A stretch of 64,000 nt of DNA from Sulfurihydrogenibium sp. YO3AOP1 (GTDB lineage: Bacteria > Aquificota > Aquificia > Aquificales > Hydrogenothermaceae). The DNA is taken from NCBI RefSeq assembly GCF_000020325.1, contig NC_010730.1:62001-126000 (forward strand). Reading direction: 5' to 3'. Of the stretch, positions 9,380 to 52,640 are shown in pieces (within the stretch, counting starts at the first letter, position 1; every line of letters starts with the position of its first letter). The notes beneath the pieces were generated by a model. The model saw only the letters and a program-made list of their open reading frames with translations. It had not been told where the DNA came from and did not search any database. The translations under genes were made by a program, and so were the position numbers.

Positions 9380-9504
9380 AAGGAAAAGGTTGATCAATAA
9401 GCATTAAAGGAAGGATAACCTTGGATGTCATCGTATATTAAATATACTAAAAATTTTTTAAACTATAAGAGAATAAGTTTTATAATAATTATAGACATGG
9501 GAGA

Positions 9505-9660
9505 AAAAAAGAAGGACAGATCAAGTTTCTGTCATTGGTCTTTTAAGACCGATCAGGATGTTTTAGACTGCCCTTCCTCTACTTCCTAAAACCTGAATCA
9601 GAACATTAGGCTTTTAAGCCTGTATTTAACTACGATGATAGGTTATCAGGAAGTTTCTTT
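9505..9660 (+). ncRNA. Predicted IS110 bridge RNA, copy A
   Basis: Two stem-internal-loop units lie upstream of the transposase. Unit 1: outer stem 9511-9519/9568-9576, inner hairpin GGTCTT/AAGACC (9537-9550). The 5' loop strand holds CTGTCAT (9529-9535) and the 3' strand CAGGATG (9554-9560). These equal the left target TGTCAT and the reverse complement of CATCCTG. Unit 2: outer stem ACTTCCT/AGGAAGT (9581-9587/9648-9654), inner hairpin AGGCTT/AAGCCT. Its loop strands hold AGAACAT (9600-9606), identical to the element's right end, and TACGATG (9631-9637), the reverse complement of its left end CATCGTA. This is the layout known for IS621-type bridge RNAs. Exact RNA ends are not known. Confidence 0.78.
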
Positions 9661-10189
9661 CATGTCAAGTATTTTATGAAAGGAGGTACTATTATGAACA
9701 GCTACAAAATTGTTATAGGAGTTGATGTATCTAAAAACTCATTCACTGCTACAGTTTTGTATGATAACAAGAAAGAAAATTTTGAAGTTAAATCTGACCC
9801 AGTTGAGTTTGAAATGAAAGTAAAGCCTTACCTTAAGAAGTTTAAAAAGTCAGATATGCTTATCATAATGGAGCATACAGGAGTTTACCATTTAAAGCTT
9901 GCTAATTATCTGTATGAAAATGGTTATAAAGTAGCAGTAGTAAATCCATTTTCAATAAAGAAATTTATGGAAGCTAAAATGACAAGAGTTAAAACAGATA
10001 AAGCTGATTCATTCTTTATAGCAGAGTATGGAAGAACGTTTTTCGATGGAGAGCTTTATAAACCAAAATCAGATGTAGAAAAAGAAATAGAAGTAAAACT
10101 AAAGATATTGGAAGACTTACAACAGCAGCTTACAATGCTAAGAAACAAAAGAGAATCGTTAAGTCATGTACCAATGAAAAAATTGAAAG

Positions 10190-11486
10190 GAGACTTGTCA
10201 ATAATTTTGTGTCTGGATTGAAAACTTTTTATTAAACAATTGTAAAATTTCATAAGAGACTCCTTTAAAAGCAGGTATAGGCTTTTTCCATTTTCCATTC
10301 TTTAAATTGTCTCTTTGTATAAGCAGATTTATCTCAAGAATGTCCACAGATTGAAAATATCCACCTAAATTTATTCTTACCTTTTCTATCATGCTATTAA
10401 CACTTTCAACTGGATTTGTTGTGTATATGTGCTTTCTTAGATTTTCTGGATATTTTAAAAAACATAAGTATCTCTCTTTGTTAGATTGAATATGTTTTAT
10501 AAAGCTTGGATATTTAGACTTAAATCTACCGCATAAATCATCTAATTTTTCTAATCCATCTTCATAATCTAAGCTGTTTTCTTTTATGTTTTTCAGTTCT
10601 TTGTTAAATACTTGTGAATCTTCTTTATCCATCTGATTTCTAACGTTTCTTTGTAAATGGACTAAACATAGCTGATGGTCTGTATAAGGAAATAGTGTTT
10701 CTATGGCTTTTGTTATCCCAGGAAAATCATCACTTACTATAAGCATTACCCTTTTTAGTCCTCTATCTATTAAATCATTGAATACTTTTATCCAGTCTGC
10801 TTTGTTTTCACTACTGAAAAATGTGTAAAATCCAAATATATCTTTATTTCCTTGTAAATCTATTCCAAGAACTACATAGACAGAAGCCTTTCTGATTTTG
10901 TTTTTCTCTTTTATATCACAGTGATATGCGTCTATATACAGTACAAATGCATCCGATGGAAGCTCTCTTGTTTTAAAATCATTAAGTCTTTCTATAAGCT
11001 CTTTTTTGATTTTATCCATATGTTGTTTTGAGTAGTTTAAGCCCAAGCTTTTTAATGTAGAATCTATCTTGCTTTCTGAGTATCCATTGGATACTAAACT
11101 CATAAGAAGGTTTATGTAATCTTCATTAACTCTTTTGTAAGGGTCAGGTAATATTTGTGGTCTAAATCTACCCTTTCTATCTCTTGGGACATTTATGTTA
11201 AGCTTGAAAGAACCAGTATTTAGGCTTCTTTCATAATATCCGTTTGCTTTGTTGTCTTCATCATTTTCAAGGAAGAAATTTCTTTCCTGATTCATAATTA
11301 GTTCCACAACAGATTCTAAAAGCTTTCTTATACCTATCTTTTCTTCTTGAGTTGTTATACCGTTTGGGAAAAGTTCTTTTACTAATTCTTCGGTAGATCT
11401 GTCTAATATTTTTTCAAAGTATTCTTTCTTATCCATTACTACTCCTCCTTATAATTTTATTTAGACACAACATTATTTTAACTCCC
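10190..11486 (-). mobile_element. IS256-family insertion sequence, copy A (1,297 bp)
   Basis: The element is bounded by an 8-bp direct repeat ATTGAAAG (10182-10189 and 11487-11494), the target duplication expected for IS256. The ends are imperfect inverted repeats: GAGACTTGTCAATAATTTTG... at the left, and the right end reads GGGAGTTAAAATAATGTTG... on the minus strand. The terminal parts share AATAATnTTGTGTCT. It carries one transposase gene. An almost identical copy of the same length is at 37343-38639. Confidence 0.93.
10198..11436 (-). CDS. IS256-family (mutator-type) transposase
   Basis: 412 aa DDE transposase. Candidate catalytic residues are D169 (VLYIDAYHCD), D236 or D237 (IVSDDFPGITKAI) and E344 (NPVESVNSMIEKVR). 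The family Cys/His segment HQLCLVHLQRN follows the second Asp. AAGGAGGAG precedes the ATG at 11436. The frame is intact and full length. It differs from the copy at 37351 at four residues (R90, N109, K142, E146 here; K, D, A, Q there). It is probably active, inserted inside an IS110. Confidence 0.95.
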   Translation of the reverse strand: MDKKEYFEKILDRSTEELVKELFPNGITTQEEKIGIRKLLESVVELIMNQERNFFLENDEDNKANGYYERSLNTGSFKLNINVPRDRKGRFRPQILPDPYKRVNEDYINLLMSLVSNGYSESKIDSTLKSLGLNYSKQHMDKIKKELIERLNDFKTRELPSDAFVLYIDAYHCDIKEKNKIRKASVYVVLGIDLQGNKDIFGFYTFFSSENKADWIKVFNDLIDRGLKRVMLIVSDDFPGITKAIETLFPYTDHQLCLVHLQRNVRNQMDKEDSQVFNKELKNIKENSLDYEDGLEKLDDLCGRFKSKYPSFIKHIQSNKERYLCFLKYPENLRKHIYTTNPVESVNSMIEKVRINLGGYFQSVDILEINLLIQRDNLKNGKWKKPIPAFKGVSYEILQLFNKKFSIQTQNY

Positions 11487-12105
11487 ATTGAAAGAGAATT
11501 TAGAATATTACGATGAGCTAATTAGAAAAATAGAAAAAAACATAAAAGAACTTGAGAAAGAGATAAAAGAATTGTCTAAGAAGAATTATCAAGAGGAATA
11601 CAAACTTTTAAAAAGCATACCTGGTATAAGTGATAGGACTATAGGAATGATAATATCAGTATATGGAAATTTTGAAAGATTTAAGAGTGTAAAAGATATA
11701 TCGAGTTTTATAGGAATCAGTCCAAGCCCATATGAAAGTGCAGCATGTGTAAAGAAAAGTGGCTGGATAAAGAAGATGGGAAATCCATATGCAAGGAAAA
11801 TATTATACATGGCAGCATTATCAGCAATAAGGTTTAACAAATACTGCAGAGAATTATACGAAAGATTAGTAAGTAAAGGTAAGGCTAAAAAGTTAGCATT
11901 AGTAGCTGTAGCACATAAGTTATTAAGGCAGGCATACGGTGTATTAAAGAACAAAAGACCATTTGATGAAAATTTTTGTACTTGACATTTAACATAGAAC
12001 ATTCTGAGCGAAGCAAAGAATCTCCTACTTTTATTGAGTTTCTCACCCGACGTATACTTATCTGATTAAATAGTAGACCTCTTTATTCGAGTAATTTTCT
12101 TCTCC

Positions 12106-28556: not shown

Positions 28557-28690
28557 AAAAAAAATGTTTGAATAATCTAAGATCTAATCGAGAATATTTT
28601 AAACAGTTAAATCTTTACTCAGATCAACCCTTTTAAATTAGATATATAAAATTTAGAGGAAAGAGATTAGTAAAAACAGTAATAAGTTAA

Positions 28691-29042
28691 GTGGAGGCGG
28701 GGGGAATCGAACCCCCGTCCGGCAAAGGCCAAGCCCAAAGGGCTTCTACATGCTTAGCCTGTGATTAAGGTTTCGCCCTAAGCTCCTCCACAGGCAGAGG
28801 AGCTTAAAGCTATCCCCGTTAGGTTTCGAGCCTTCCCTCAGGGGAGGTTGGAAAGGCCCTATCCCGTATGTCTTACGCCCTATCCCAGCCTACGGGCAAG
28901 CCAGGTAGGACGTCGCTGCGTTAATTAAGCAGCGAGAGCGATTTCGCGTTCGGGAATTGTTTTGTTTTGGTTTTTTACGTAGTGACCTTCTACGGCATGC
29001 TTCCCTTTGCTCGCCGCTTGCCGTCGAACCCGTATCGCCCCC
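28691..29042 (-). ncRNA. ssrA: Transfer-messenger RNA (tmRNA)
   Basis: The minus strand starts GGGGGCGATACGGGTTCGACGG and ends GGGGGTTCGATTCCCCCCGC plus CTCCAC, the tRNA-like ends of one-piece tmRNA with a 7-bp acceptor stem and a T-arm. The internal frame ends IPEREIALAA then TAA, close to the Aquifex tag ending ELALAA. GC-rich pseudoknot stems follow. The start of the tag is not certain: the open frame extends back to VKNQNKT. CCA is not encoded. The local G+C is far above the surrounding DNA, as expected for a thermophile RNA. Confidence 0.96.
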
Positions 29043-31055: not shown

Positions 31056-32294
31056 TTAAATGACTTTTATATTTATTTTTTGAATAGCGTTATAACCATA
31101 TCCATGAGGCTCCCATATTGCTTTTATTGGCTGTGTTTGTCCGATGCTGTTTGTAGCCTTTACCATGATTGTGTAGTTTCCTTTTTTATTAGGCTTAAAC
31201 ACATAACTAAACTGTCTCCATGAAAACTTGCCATAATCTTTATCTAATTGTGCCTCTACCCATGTTTTTCCACCATCTACAGAAACTTCTACCATTTTAA
31301 TTCCATAACCACCATCCCATGTTAAACCTTTTACTTCTATTGGCTGACCTAATTTGAATACTTGCCCTTTTTCTATGTTTGTGATAATGGAGTTTATTGT
31401 TACCTCTGTTATAGGCATATCTTCCGAGTTCATCTGAGATAAAAATCTTTCCCTTATTGGAAATTTGTCGACAGAAACCCTGTAAGCGTTTTTCATCCAG
31501 AAATTATCTAAAGGAGTAGAGATTACCGTTATATCGGTTAAATGCTTAATCCAATAAGTCGCTGTCCAGCCAGGAACTACAAGCACGAGAGGATATCCAT
31601 TTAAATATGGAATCGGCTCATCGTTCATCTCATAGGCAACCAATACCTCTTCTTGCGTAGCTTTCCAAACAGGAATACTTTTTACAAAATCAGGAGTTGT
31701 TGGCATAAGACCAGACTCAGCACCATTAAAGGCAACTTCAAGAGCGTTAGCCTTTAATCCGGCTTTATTTAAGATATCTTTTAATCTTACACCTTTCCAT
31801 TTAGCATTTCCCATAGCTCCGTATCCCCATTGTACTCCGGGTACATGAGGATTAAATAAACCTCTCATATTTCCAGAACATGCTTTAAGGGCTACAATCT
31901 CAACTTGTTCAAATTTTGTTTTTAAGTCTTCCATTGTAAGTTCTAAAGTTTTTTCTACAGCATCTCCAGTGATTTTGAGCTTCCAAGTTTTTTCATCAAT
32001 ATCTTGTGGTATATTTGCAAGATGGTATCTAACAAAGAAAACATCATTTGGAGTAAAGATTTCATCAAAGTATTTAAATGGAGTCTCGTAGTTTGGAGCT
32101 CTGAAGGCCTTTTTTATCAAAGGTTTTTTTCCGGGTAAAGCTTCTAAAATTTGCTCTTTAATCGTTCCATCCAGAAGTAAATCTGCCGCAGGTCCTAAGA
32201 GAGATTTATCAACTTGAGCAAACAGTTCCTTTGGAAGGAGTAAACCGGTTGCTGTCATAAGCAGTCCTTTTTTCAATAATTCTCGTCTGTTCAT
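31056..32294 (-). CDS. sorA: Sulfite dehydrogenase molybdenum subunit (SorA/SoxC type), Tat-exported
   Basis: 412 aa. MNRRELLKKGLLMTATGLLL is a twin-arginine signal. The Mo-ligand Cys is C139 in VALKACSGNMRGLF. The oxidoreductase Mo-binding domain (about 70-270) is followed by a Mo-co dimerisation domain (about 290-405; GYGIKMVEVSVDGGKTW). Oxidises sulfite to sulfate in the periplasm. First gene of sorA-sorB-yeiH-uspA. SoxC is the main alternative, but no soxD-like or other sox gene is present. Confidence 0.87.
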   Translation of the reverse strand: MNRRELLKKGLLMTATGLLLPKELFAQVDKSLLGPAADLLLDGTIKEQILEALPGKKPLIKKAFRAPNYETPFKYFDEIFTPNDVFFVRYHLANIPQDIDEKTWKLKITGDAVEKTLELTMEDLKTKFEQVEIVALKACSGNMRGLFNPHVPGVQWGYGAMGNAKWKGVRLKDILNKAGLKANALEVAFNGAESGLMPTTPDFVKSIPVWKATQEEVLVAYEMNDEPIPYLNGYPLVLVVPGWTATYWIKHLTDITVISTPLDNFWMKNAYRVSVDKFPIRERFLSQMNSEDMPITEVTINSIITNIEKGQVFKLGQPIEVKGLTWDGGYGIKMVEVSVDGGKTWVEAQLDKDYGKFSWRQFSYVFKPNKKGNYTIMVKATNSIGQTQPIKAIWEPHGYGYNAIQKINIKVI

Positions 32295-37074: not shown

Positions 37075-37280
37075 GATAAATAATTTAACGATTTGGTTTT
37101 AAATAGTCAAGTTGATGCATTAAGGGTGTTGCAAAAAATTTAAGATTTGATATACTATCATTTTGCATTTGTGATAAGAAATACTATTTTTGCGTTTTCT
37201 GTCATCGTATATTAAATATACCAAAATTTTTTAAACTATAAGAGAATAAGTTTTATAATAATTATAGACATGGGAGAAAA

Positions 37281-37342
37281 AAAGAAGGACAGATCAAGTG
37301 TTTGTCATTGGTCTTTTAAGACCGCTGTAGAATGTTTTAGAC
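37281..37342 (+). ncRNA. Truncated bridge-RNA region, copy B
   Basis: Only the target-binding unit remains: the GAAGGACAG strand of the outer stem, left guide TTGTCAT (37302-37308), hairpin GGTCTT/AAGACC, and right guide AGAATG (37329-37334). The 3' strand of the outer stem and the whole donor unit are lost at the IS256 border, so no functional RNA is expected. Confidence 0.6.
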
Positions 37343-38639
37343 GAGACTTGTCAATAATTTTGTGTCTGGATTGAAAACTTTTTATTAAACAATTGTAAAA
37401 TTTCATAAGAGACTCCTTTAAAAGCAGGTATAGGCTTTTTCCATTTTCCATTCTTTAAATTGTCTCTTTGTATAAGCAGATTTATCTCAAGAATGTCCAC
37501 AGATTGAAAATATCCACCTAAATTTATTCTTACCTTTTCTATCATGCTATTAACACTTTCAACTGGATTTGTTGTGTATATGTGCTTTCTTAGATTTTCT
37601 GGATATTTTAAAAAACATAAGTATCTCTCTTTGTTAGATTGAATATGTTTTATAAAGCTTGGATATTTAGACTTAAATCTACCGCATAAATCATCTAATT
37701 TTTCTAATCCATCTTCATAATCTAAGCTGTTTTCTTTTATGTTTTTCAGTTCTTTGTTAAATACTTGTGAATCTTCTTTATCCATCTGATTTCTAACGTT
37801 TCTTTGTAAATGGACTAAACATAGCTGATGGTCTGTATAAGGAAATAGTGTTTCTATGGCTTTTGTTATCCCAGGAAAATCATCACTTACTATAAGCATT
37901 ACCCTTTTTAGTCCTCTATCTATTAAATCATTGAATACTTTTATCCAGTCTGCTTTGTTTTCACTACTGAAAAATGTGTAAAATCCAAATATATCTTTAT
38001 TTCCTTGTAAATCTATTCCAAGAACTACATAGACAGAAGCCTTTCTGATTTTGTTTTTCTCTTTTATATCACAGTGATATGCGTCTATATACAGTACAAA
38101 TGCATCCGATGGAAGCTCTCTTGTTTTAAAATCATTAAGTCTTTCTATAAGCTGTTTTTTGATTGCATCCATATGTTGTTTTGAGTAGTTTAAGCCCAAG
38201 CTTTTTAATGTAGAATCTATCTTGCTTTCTGAGTATCCATTGGATACCAAACTCATAAGAAGGTCTATATAATCTTCATTAACTCTTTTATAAGGGTCAG
38301 GTAATATTTGTGGTCTAAATTTACCCTTTCTATCTCTTGGGACATTTATGTTAAGCTTGAAAGAACCAGTATTTAGGCTTCTTTCATAATATCCGTTTGC
38401 TTTGTTGTCTTCATCATTTTCAAGGAAGAAATTTCTTTCCTGATTCATAATCAGTTCCACAACAGATTCTAAAAGCTTTCTTATACCTATCTTTTCTTCT
38501 TGAGTTGTTATACCGTTTGGGAAAAGTTCTTTTACTAATTCTTCGGTAGATCTGTCTAATATTTTTTCAAAGTATTCTTTCTTATCCATTACTACTCCTC
38601 CTTATAATTTTATTTAGACACAACATTATTTTAACTCCC
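37343..38639 (-). mobile_element. IS256-family insertion sequence, copy B (1,297 bp)
   Basis: Same ends and length as the element at 10190-11486. The flanking octamers differ (TTTTAGAC left, AAAAGATA right), so no target duplication remains. With the 817-bp gap in the surrounding IS110, this suggests recombination between IS256 copies or an IS256-adjacent deletion after insertion. Confidence 0.9.
37351..38589 (-). CDS. IS256-family transposase, copy B
   Basis: 412 aa, full length and intact, with the same D169/D236-237/E344 candidates as copy A. It differs from copy A at four residues (K90, D109, A142, Q146 here). The CTCCTCC ribosome-site region upstream is unchanged. The presence of two near-identical intact copies indicates recent transposition. 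Confidence 0.95.
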   Translation of the reverse strand: MDKKEYFEKILDRSTEELVKELFPNGITTQEEKIGIRKLLESVVELIMNQERNFFLENDEDNKANGYYERSLNTGSFKLNINVPRDRKGKFRPQILPDPYKRVNEDYIDLLMSLVSNGYSESKIDSTLKSLGLNYSKQHMDAIKKQLIERLNDFKTRELPSDAFVLYIDAYHCDIKEKNKIRKASVYVVLGIDLQGNKDIFGFYTFFSSENKADWIKVFNDLIDRGLKRVMLIVSDDFPGITKAIETLFPYTDHQLCLVHLQRNVRNQMDKEDSQVFNKELKNIKENSLDYEDGLEKLDDLCGRFKSKYPSFIKHIQSNKERYLCFLKYPENLRKHIYTTNPVESVNSMIEKVRINLGGYFQSVDILEINLLIQRDNLKNGKWKKPIPAFKGVSYEILQLFNKKFSIQTQNY

Positions 38640-38934
38640 AAAAGATATATCGAGTTTTATAGGAATCAGTCCGGGTATACATGAAAGTGGAACGAGTGTA
38701 AAGAAAAGTGGTTCAATAAAAAAGATGGGAAATCCATATGCAAGGAAAATATTATACATGGCAGCATTATCAGCAATAAGGTTTAACAAATACTGCAGAG
38801 AATTATACGAAAGATTAGTAAGTAAAGGTAAGGCTAAAAAGTTAGCATTAGTGGTTGTAGCACATAAGTTATTAAGGCAAGCATATGGTGTATTAAAAAG
38901 CAGAAGACCATTTGATGAAAATTTTTGCACTTGA
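38640..38934 (+). pseudogene. 3' fragment of IS110 transposase, copy B
   Basis: Continues in frame from KDISSFIGISPGIHESGTSVKKSGSIKKMGNPYARK to the C-terminus FDENFCT, equivalent to roughly the last 98 residues of the transposase. It has no start and no N-terminal catalytic domain. Confidence 0.9.
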
Positions 38935-39082
38935 CATTTAACATAGAACATCCTGAGCGTTAGCGAAGAATCTCCGCCTTTTACCCAATTTCTCATCCGA
39001 AGTATATTATTTATATAATTCAAGAAGATCGCAAACCTTTCGAATTCTCAACCAAAACAAAAAAGATTTGCTATATCAAAAA

Positions 39083-50008: not shown

Positions 50009-50064
50009 TTTTAACTCCATAAAGTACTTAAACTTGTCCATTTTCTTTTAATAATTAAAATACG

Positions 50065-50166
50065 TTGTGATGATAAATTTAATAAAAGTAGGAGATTCTT
50101 CGCCGGCTTCAGAATGACAAATTAGACTACCCTTTTTCCAATACTTATCATTTAACCTTTGAATGT
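50065..50166 (+). repeat. Left part of a type II repeat split by IS110 copy C
   Basis: ACGTTGTGATGATAAATTTAATAAAAGTAGGAGATTCTTCGCCGG..., CAGAATGACAAATTAG, then CCTTTGAATGTCAT. The right part continues at 51437 (TCTGAGGCTTTAGTC ... AATTTCTCACCC, to about 51508). An uninterrupted relative of the same layout is at 61442. Confidence 0.82.
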
Positions 50167-50244
50167 CATTGTATATTAAATATACTAAAAATTTTTTAAA
50201 CTATAAGAGAATAAGTTTTATAATAATTATAGACATGAGAGAAA

Positions 50245-50393
50245 AAAGGAAGGACAGATCAAGTGACTGTCATTTGTCTTTTAAGACCGCTGTAGAATGT
50301 TTTAGACTGTCCTTCCTCTACTTCCTAAAACCTGAATCAGAACATTAGGCTTTTAAGCCTGTATTTAACTACGATGATAGGTTATCAGGAAGT
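50245..50393 (+). ncRNA. Predicted IS110 bridge RNA, copy C
   Basis: Same scaffold as copy A, with a perfect outer stem GGAAGGACAG/CTGTCCTTCC. Target guides: CTGTCAT (50267-50273) and AGAATG (50294-50299, preceded by GCTGT in place of copy A's GATC). AGAATG pairs with CATTCT, exactly the right flank of this copy. Donor guides AGAACAT (50339-50345) and TACGATG (50370-50376) are unchanged. The left end here is CATTGTA, so the second donor guide pairs with one G-T wobble. Confidence 0.76.
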
Positions 50394-50432
50394 TTCTTTC
50401 ATGTCAAGTATTTTATGAAAGGAGGTATTCTT

Positions 50433-51419
50433 ATGAATGGCTACAAAATTGTTATAGGGGTTGATGTATCTAAAAACTCATTCACTGCTACAGTTTTGTA
50501 TGATAACAAGAAAGAAACTTTTGAAGTTAAATCTGACCCAGTTGAGTTTGAAATGAAAGTAAAGCCTTACCTTAAGAAGTTTAAAAAGTCAGATATGCTT
50601 ATCATAATGGAACATACGGGAGTTTACCATTTAAAGCTTGCTAATTATCTGTATGAAAATGGTTATAAAGTAGCAGTAGTAAATCCATTTTCAATAAAGA
50701 AATTTATGGAAGCTAAAATGACAAGAGTTAAAACAGATAAAGCTGATTCATTCTTTATTGCAGAATATGGAAGAACGTTTTTCGATGGAGAGCTTTATAA
50801 ACCAAAATCAGATGTAGAAAAAGAAATAGAAGTAAAACTAAAGATATTGGAAGACTTACAACAGCAGCTTACAATGCTAAGAAACAAAAGAGAATCATTA
50901 AGTCATGTGCCAATGAAAAAATTGAAATAGAATTTAGAATATTACGATGAGATAATCAGAAAAATAGAAAAAAACATAAAAGAACTTGAGAAAGAGATAA
51001 AAGAATTGTCTAAGAAGAATTATCAAGAGGAATACAAACTTTTAAAAAGCATACCTGGTATAAGTGATAGGACTATAGGAATGATAATATCAGTATATGG
51101 AAATTTTGAAAGATTTAAGAGTGTAAAAGATATATCGAGTTTTATAGGAATCAGTCCGGGTATACATGAAAGTGGAACGAGTGTAAAGAAAAGTGGTTCA
51201 ATAAAAAAGATGGGAAATCCATATGCAAGGAAAATATTATACATGGCAGCATTATCAGCAATAAGGTTTAACAAATACTGCAGAGAATTATACGAAAGAT
51301 TAGTAAGTAAAGGTAAGGCTAAAAAATTAGCATTAGTGGCTGTAGCACATAAGTTATTAAGGCAGGCATATGGTGTATTAAAGAATAAAAGACCATTTGA
51401 TGAAAATTTTTGCACTTGA
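50433..51419 (+). pseudogene. IS110 transposase with one in-frame amber codon
   Basis: About 328 codons from ATG 50433 (GGAGG upstream): MNGYKIVIGVDVSKNSF ... EHTGVYH ... KTDKADS, then TAG at 50928-50930 where copy A has GAG (Glu), then NLEYYDEIIRK ... ESGTSVKKSG ... FDENFCT. Everything else is in frame and near-identical to copy A. A single G-to-T change thus truncates the protein after the RuvC domain, before the Tnp_20 catalytic-serine domain. Confidence 0.9.
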
Positions 51420-51515
51420 CATTTAACATAGAACATTCTGAGGCTTTAGTCCGAAGGATCTCCTTTTAAATTCTATAAAAACCACTAATTTCTCACCCAA
51501 AGCATTCACTTTCTT

Positions 51516-52640
51516 TTAATAATTTAAAGCGTCTTGACTGTGAAATCTAAAACCTTCTTTTTTGTTTATATATTCGATATTTAAAACCATCATTATCATC
51601 AGGCTAAACATTATTAAAGCGGTTCCACCGTAGCTTAAAAACGGCAATGGAACGCCAACAACAGGTGCCATTCCTACATTCATCGCGATATTTATAAATG
51701 CTTGAAATCCGATGATTGAAGCAATTCCATAGCACAAAAACTTTCCAAATAATTCATTAGTCTTCATTCCAATGTAAAAAATTCTTAAACTTAAAATAAA
51801 GTAGACTGTTAAAATTAAAAATGAAACTACAAAGCCCCATTCTTCTCCAATAGTTGCGTAGATAAAGTCTGTATGCTGTTCTGGTAAGAAGTAATATTTA
51901 GACTGGGAGCCTTGAAGGTATCCTTTTCCGGTTAGCATTCCAGAACCAATTGCAATTTTAGACTGAATAATATGATAGGCTGTTCCTTTTGGGTCGCTTT
52001 CCGGATTTAAAAAAGCTATAATTCTATTTTTTTGATAATCTTTTAAGTGTGTCCATATAAAAGGACTTAAAATTATTCCTGTCAACACAAATCCAATTAT
52101 ATATTTAATGTTAAACTTTGCTAAAAATACCATAACCAAAACTGGCAAAACAACAAGAATTGCGCTTCCAAGGTCTGGTTGAGAATAAATTAGTATGAAG
52201 GGGATAGCCGATAATCCCATTATTTTTAGAAAGTCTTTAAAAGATAGAGGAAGTTTTGTGTTAGATATAAAATACGCTGAAAAGATGATCATTGAAAATT
52301 TTGCTACTTCTGACGGTTGAAGTTGGAAAAAGCCTAAATTTATCCATCTTTTAGCTCCAAGAATAGAAACACCAAAAAATTTGACAAAGATAAGAAGAAT
52401 AACGCTTACTAAGTATAAATAAAAAGATATATATCCAAACTTCCTGTATTCTATCAAAAAAGGCAAAAAAGTAATTATAAAGAAAGCAATAGAAACGAAG
52501 ACAATTTGCTTTATGTATAAATTTGAATACTCATGATAAGATGCACTATAAATGTTAATTACACTCCAAATCAGTAAAAAAGCTGTAAGTAAATAAACAA
52601 TTAGGTCTGTTTGCTTAATTTTTTTGAATAAATTAAACAT
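51516..52640 (-). CDS. rodA: Rod-shape determining protein RodA (SEDS glycosyltransferase)
   Basis: 374 aa with about ten TM segments. Polymerises lipid II for side-wall growth. Signatures: FGAKRWINLGFFQLQPSE-type loop (here SILGAKRWINLG), QPDLGSAILVV, GSGMLTGKGYLQGSQSKYYFLPEQHTDFIYATIGEEWG, and NVGMAPVVGVPLPFLSYGG. It follows the PBP2 gene with overlapping ends. Confidence 0.95.
   Translation of the reverse strand: MFNLFKKIKQTDLIVYLLTAFLLIWSVINIYSASYHEYSNLYIKQIVFVSIAFFIITFLPFLIEYRKFGYISFYLYLVSVILLIFVKFFGVSILGAKRWINLGFFQLQPSEVAKFSMIIFSAYFISNTKLPLSFKDFLKIMGLSAIPFILIYSQPDLGSAILVVLPVLVMVFLAKFNIKYIIGFVLTGIILSPFIWTHLKDYQKNRIIAFLNPESDPKGTAYHIIQSKIAIGSGMLTGKGYLQGSQSKYYFLPEQHTDFIYATIGEEWGFVVSFLILTVYFILSLRIFYIGMKTNELFGKFLCYGIASIIGFQAFINIAMNVGMAPVVGVPLPFLSYGGTALIMFSLMIMMVLNIEYINKKEGFRFHSQDALNY

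What the first reader, a model, noticed from the sequence alone, without database searches (positions are those of the whole stretch)
50245..50300. Target guides vary between IS110 copies while the scaffold is constant
Across copies A (9511-9576), B (37284-37342) and C (50249-50313) the stems are nearly invariant. The left-guide strand differs (TTTCTGTCAT, GTTTGTCAT, GACTGTCAT) and the right-guide strand differs in sequence and length (GATCAGGATG versus GCTGTAGAATG). Copy C's AGAATG pairs with its own right flank CATTCT. Copy A's CAGGATG pairs with its CATTCTG flank through one G-T wobble. Variation confined to guide segments suggests natural reprogramming, or gene conversion of guides from targets.
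Basis: partly seen in the sequence, partly recalled or inferred. Interest (0 to 1): 0.75.

Follow-up and report, generated by a model that had tools for sequence, protein, structure and literature searches.

The report
IS110 bridge-RNA guides vary between copies
A jumping gene present in more than 20 copies in this hot-spring bacterium carries a built-in address RNA whose outer address letters differ between copies, yet every copy examined still lands in the same family of repeated DNA, so this is fine-tuning of a known RNA-guided mechanism and not copy-by-copy retargeting.

Summary
The window holds three broken copies of an IS110-group element (DEDD recombinase, relative of IS621) with a two-loop bridge RNA. 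Across 27 copies from three genomes of one genus, the three outer left-guide bases (NNN of NNNTGTCAT) are the most variable 3-base stretch of the RNA. The donor guides and stems are nearly constant, and the right guide varies in its 5' part and at one A/G position. All variants keep TGTCAT and AG[A/G]ATG, matching one dispersed repeat, [T/C]GTCAT[T/C]CTGAG.

Guides do read targets at population level: in sister genome G002 all copies carry TTC, and TTC best explains their left flanks of all 64 triplets (P=0.0004). The right-guide A/G tracks the target's T/C across three genomes (combined P about 0.0001). The proposed copy-by-copy test fails in this genome: left guide versus own flank P=0.29 (0.20 stratified over genomes), right guide P=0.60, exact left matches 1 of 24 (1.5 expected). 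Guides copied from targets get no support. The copies are mosaics whose alleles reassort across the whole element, left and right guides included, which points to recombination between copies. Natural guide reprogramming was already reported in 2024.

The parts
50164..50169 (+). left target half, TGTCAT, of copy C (left flank; CAT is shared with the donor core)
   Evidence: the same hexamer (or CGTCAT) lies left of nearly all copies
50170..51436 (+). IS110-group element copy C (about 1267 bp), recombinase gene broken by an in-frame TAG after codon 165
50247..50257 (+). 5' arm of the target-binding-loop stem (AGGAAGGACAG)
   Evidence: fold z=-3.28; nearly invariant pairs in 27 copies
50265..50273 (+). 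left target guide GACTGTCAT; the first three bases vary between copies
50289..50299 (+). right target guide GCTGTAGAATG; AG[A/G]ATG pairs with CAT[T/C]CT of the target
50307..50317 (+). 3' arm of the target-binding-loop stem (CTGTCCTTCCT)
50339..50345 (+). left donor guide AGAACAT, identical to the element's own right end AGAACAT
   Evidence: no variation in 27 copies
50370..50376 (+). right donor guide TACGATG, reverse complement of CATCGTA at the usual left junction (copy C itself has CATTGTA, one G-T wobble)
50433..51419 (+). IS110 recombinase gene of copy C, interrupted by TAG at 50928-50930; intact 328-aa versions occur elsewhere in the genome
51437..51442 (+). right target half TCTGAG of copy C
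9432..12002 (+). IS110 copy A; its recombinase gene is split by a Mutator-family IS (ORF 10198-11436, minus strand)
37206..38951 (+). IS110 copy B; its middle, including the donor-binding loop, is replaced by the same kind of IS (ORF 37351-38589, minus strand)

Best explanation
Copies A-C are members of one IS110-group insertion-sequence family, with more than 20 copies in this genome and more in two sister genomes. Each complete copy carries a bridge RNA upstream of the recombinase. One loop (LTG NNNTGTCAT, RTG ...AG[A/G]ATG) pairs with the chromosomal target and the other (LDG AGAACAT, RDG TACGATG) with the element's own joined ends. The target is a dispersed repeat, [T/C]GTCAT[T/C]CTGAG. 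The inner guide bases read the conserved repeat and stay fixed. The three outer LTG bases fall outside the repeat, and one RTG base reads a T/C difference between repeat subtypes. These tolerated positions diversify, and recombination or gene conversion between copies shuffles LTG and RTG alleles independently, so a copy's present guide often is not the one that placed it. Shown here: architecture, guide-target complementarity, hypervariability, population-level guide-target association, mosaicism. Inferred: RNA expression, transposition, and conversion as the shuffling process.
For: Recombinase hits PF01548 and PF02371 and IS621 8wt6 at E=4.7e-37. The RNA folds into two stem-loops, z=-3.28, with all four guides matching target or donor. 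The target pattern TGTCATYCTGAG occurs 221 times in the genome against 0 for the reversed pattern. G002: 14 distinct left flanks match the shared TTC guide at 2.14 of 3 positions, against 0.85 at unoccupied repeats (P<5e-5) and 1.03 at C-subtype repeats; TTC is the best of 64 triplets, P=0.0004. RT base C:T is 19:7 in G000, 11:3 in G002 and 1:10 in G005, following RTG mostly G, mostly G, and A; combined P about 0.0001. Mosaics: 1797 of 3003 informative site pairs are incompatible, fewer when sites are close (23% within 50 bp against 64% beyond 500 bp); LTG GAC and GTT each occur with three RTG types; copy C and L014 share one nonsense codon but have different guides.
Against: In G005 the occupied left flanks favour ATA although the copies carry TAT or CTT. 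In G000 no triplet is favoured (P=0.36). Flanks are not fully independent because repeats have related 5' modules. The between-genome comparison rests on three genomes. Point mutation plus selection could also produce the isolated LTG change seen in L012. No stem pair shows compensatory change, because the copies are too alike.
Confidence: 0.8

Rival explanations
1. Copy-level natural reprogramming: each copy's guide matches its own flanks because new guides go with new targets, or because guides are converted from target DNA.
For: Copy C's RTG pairs perfectly with its right flank, and L006 has GAC in both guide and flank.
Against: Permutation within G000 P=0.29, stratified P=0.20; exact matches 1 of 24 against 1.5 expected; RTG against own right flank P=0.60; copy B is mismatched.
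Confidence: 0.08
2. Neutral drift only: the distal LTG bases and the RTG 5' part are not read at all, so they vary freely.
For: No NNN preference in G000; all variants sit in the same repeat.
Against: G002 flanks recover the carried TTC as best of 64 triplets (P=0.0004), and the RTG A/G base tracks the RT base across genomes (combined P about 0.0001).
Confidence: 0.2
3. Trans mobilisation: broken copies are moved by recombinase and bridge RNA from other copies, so a copy's guide need not match its site. This can act together with the main explanation.
For: The copies in the window are all broken. Copy C and L014 share the same nonsense codon at different loci, consistent with a broken copy being moved or converted. 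IS621 accepts bridge RNA supplied in trans (PMC11208160).
Against: The mosaic block pattern already explains the shared stop codon by conversion; a single source cannot be identified.
Confidence: 0.3

Closest known systems
IS621 (IS110 group) and its bridge RNA, Durrant et al. 2024, PMC11208160
   Same: DEDD recombinase, long left-end non-coding region, target and donor loops each with left and right guides, insertion into a dispersed intergenic repeat, target tolerance at some positions
   Different: target repeat and core differ (the sequence shared here is CAT, IS621 has a CT core); a thermophile host; many guide variants within a single genome
ISEc11 / ISXne4 natural reprogramming, Nat Commun 2024, PMC11187229
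   Same: close relatives with a conserved RNA scaffold and different target-matching bases
   Different: those elements are IS1111-type and target different sites; here the variants still hit the same repeat family
16 IS110 guide bins with consensus targets, Extended Data Fig. 5 of PMC11208160
   Same: guide sequence predicts the consensus target across natural copies
   Different: that work compares orthologues; here copies of one element inside a genome and its sisters are compared

Membership tests
IS110 family, IS110 group | DEDD (RuvC-like) recombinase with Transposase_20 C-terminal domain | tested here: met
   PF01548 7.3e-23 and PF02371 4.7e-23; D11, E60, D102, D105 and the serine of HESG align with IS621
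IS110 family, IS110 group | long non-coding region upstream of the recombinase, short right end | tested here: met
   about 264 bp upstream, 17 bp downstream
IS110 family, IS110 group | bridge RNA with target-binding and donor-binding loops | tested here: met
   two stem-loops, z=-3.28, consensus fold; guides match target and donor. Predicted, not shown as transcript
IS110 family, IS110 group | guide-target covariation | tested here: met
   at population level; not at copy level within G000
IS110 family, IS110 group | circular intermediate, RNA-dependent recombination | not testable with these tools
   needs experiment
IS1111 group | non-coding region downstream of the gene | tested here: not met
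   the non-coding region is upstream
IS1111 group | long sub-terminal inverted repeats | not tested
   only inspected by eye; no dedicated search of the ends was run

The most novel reading that the evidence does not exclude
Left and right target guides act as separately exchangeable cassettes: short-tract conversion between resident copies builds new LTG-RTG pairs and so retunes the subtype of repeat that the family invades, a recombinational route of guide evolution not described for IS110 in the papers found.
Probability: 0.25. Interest if true: 0.6.

Novelty: new member of a known kind. Interest (0 to 1): 0.4.

Why it matters
It gives a small natural experiment on bridge-RNA specificity: one element family, several guide alleles, three sister genomes, and dozens to hundreds of nearly identical unoccupied sites as background. 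It indicates which guide positions are constrained and which are free, and suggests that guides are reshuffled among copies. That bears on how RNA-guided transposons change targets and on off-target tolerance in bridge-RNA tools.

Tried and rejected
An Rfam search found no bridge-RNA model match. RNAalifold found no compensatory pairs. An orthologous empty site for copy C could not be used to fix the boundaries, because the sister genomes lack the whole target repeat there. Search for relatives beyond the genus: only distant IS110 proteins (up to 39% identity over part of the protein, apart from one short 44% piece), not pursued. The idea that the target repeat forms a stable hairpin was not supported for the tested 33-mer. 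The Aquificales ncRNA paper (PMC4227106) was checked by keyword; no passage about this RNA was seen.

Full report
What is there. The window is G000:C1:62001-126000 of a 1,838,442-base single-contig genome. Copies A (9432-12002), B (37206-38951) and C (50170-51436) belong to one element family; 26 left-end matches and 27 right-end matches, some partial, occur in the genome. The intact 328-aa recombinase of other copies is IS110-type and related to IS621. The three copies in the window are all broken: A and B by a Mutator-family IS, C by an in-frame TAG.

Anatomy. The non-coding left end folds into two stem-loops. The first holds LTG NNNTGTCAT and RTG ...AG[A/G]ATG, matching the left flank TGTCAT and right flank CAT[T/C]CT. 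The second holds AGAACAT and TACGATG, matching the element's own right end and left end. CAT is shared by all four pairings, so the core lies in CAT. The target is a dispersed repeat: TGTCATYCTGAG occurs 221 times, with 0 for the reversed pattern.

The observation. In 27 copies from three genomes the LTG triplet is the most variable three-column window of 145 (0.52 against a mean of 0.036 outside guides); TGTCAT and AGAACAT do not vary. RTG varies in its 5' part, in length, and at the A/G position. Variation is not limited to guides over the element as a whole: 102 variable columns in 12 full copies, in reassorting blocks.

Do guides relate to flanks? Copy by copy in this genome, no: LTG P=0.29 after removing duplicates, stratified over genomes P=0.20, RTG base against flank base P=0.60, exact triplet matches 1 of 24 with 1.5 expected. 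By genome, yes: all G002 copies whose guide could be read carry TTC and their flanks match it at 2.14 of 3 positions against 0.85 at 71 unoccupied repeats, or 1.03 at repeats of the C subtype; TTC is best of 64 triplets, P=0.0004. The RT base follows the RTG base: C:T 19:7 and 11:3 where the guide is G in most copies, 1:10 in G005 where all copies read (apart from the relic L120) carry A; Fisher G005 against G000 P=7e-4, combined against unoccupied sites P about 1e-4. G005 left flanks favour ATA, which its guides do not match; this is unexplained.

How guides change. LTG GAC and GTT each occur with three RTG types in G000. L012 is identical to several TTC-group copies over alignment columns 5-373 except at two LTG bases. 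Copy C and L014 share a nonsense codon but differ in guides. Incompatible site pairs are common and rarer at short distance, the pattern of recombination. I infer conversion between copies; recurrent mutation at the guides is not excluded.

Known or new. Bridge RNAs, guide-target covariation over 5,511 target pairs, and insertion into repeats are published (PMC11208160), and natural reprogramming is reported for ISEc11 and ISXne4 (PMC11187229). This is a new member of a known kind; the within-genome guide shuffling is the part that may be new.

Noticed in passing
window 50039-50056 and 51507-51524: The repeat that copy C sits in is itself missing at the matching locus in two sister genomes, and is bounded by 18-bp direct repeats (CA[T/C]TTTCTTTTAATAATT), so it looks like a mobile MITE-like unit.
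   Followed up: partly
window 10198-11436 and 37351-38589: A Mutator-family IS (412-aa transposase) has inserted into IS110 copies A and B; the product at 10198-11436 hits PF00872. A third ORF of the same length lies at 31056-32294 but was not compared.
   Followed up: partly
window 50928-50930 and L014: The same in-frame TAG breaks the recombinase in copy C and in L014 at another locus, although their guides differ.
   Followed up: partly
L120 1440-1780: A diverged relic in G005 has a target loop with quite different guide letters (GCTTGCTCTTCAG); its left flank does not resemble TGTCAT.
   Followed up: partly
G005 copies (L084, L090, L092, L096, L098, L100, L102, L104): Left flanks favour ATA although guides are TAT or CTT.
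   Followed up: partly
window 28689-29042: tmRNA gene, Rfam RF00023, 187.7 bits.
   Followed up: no
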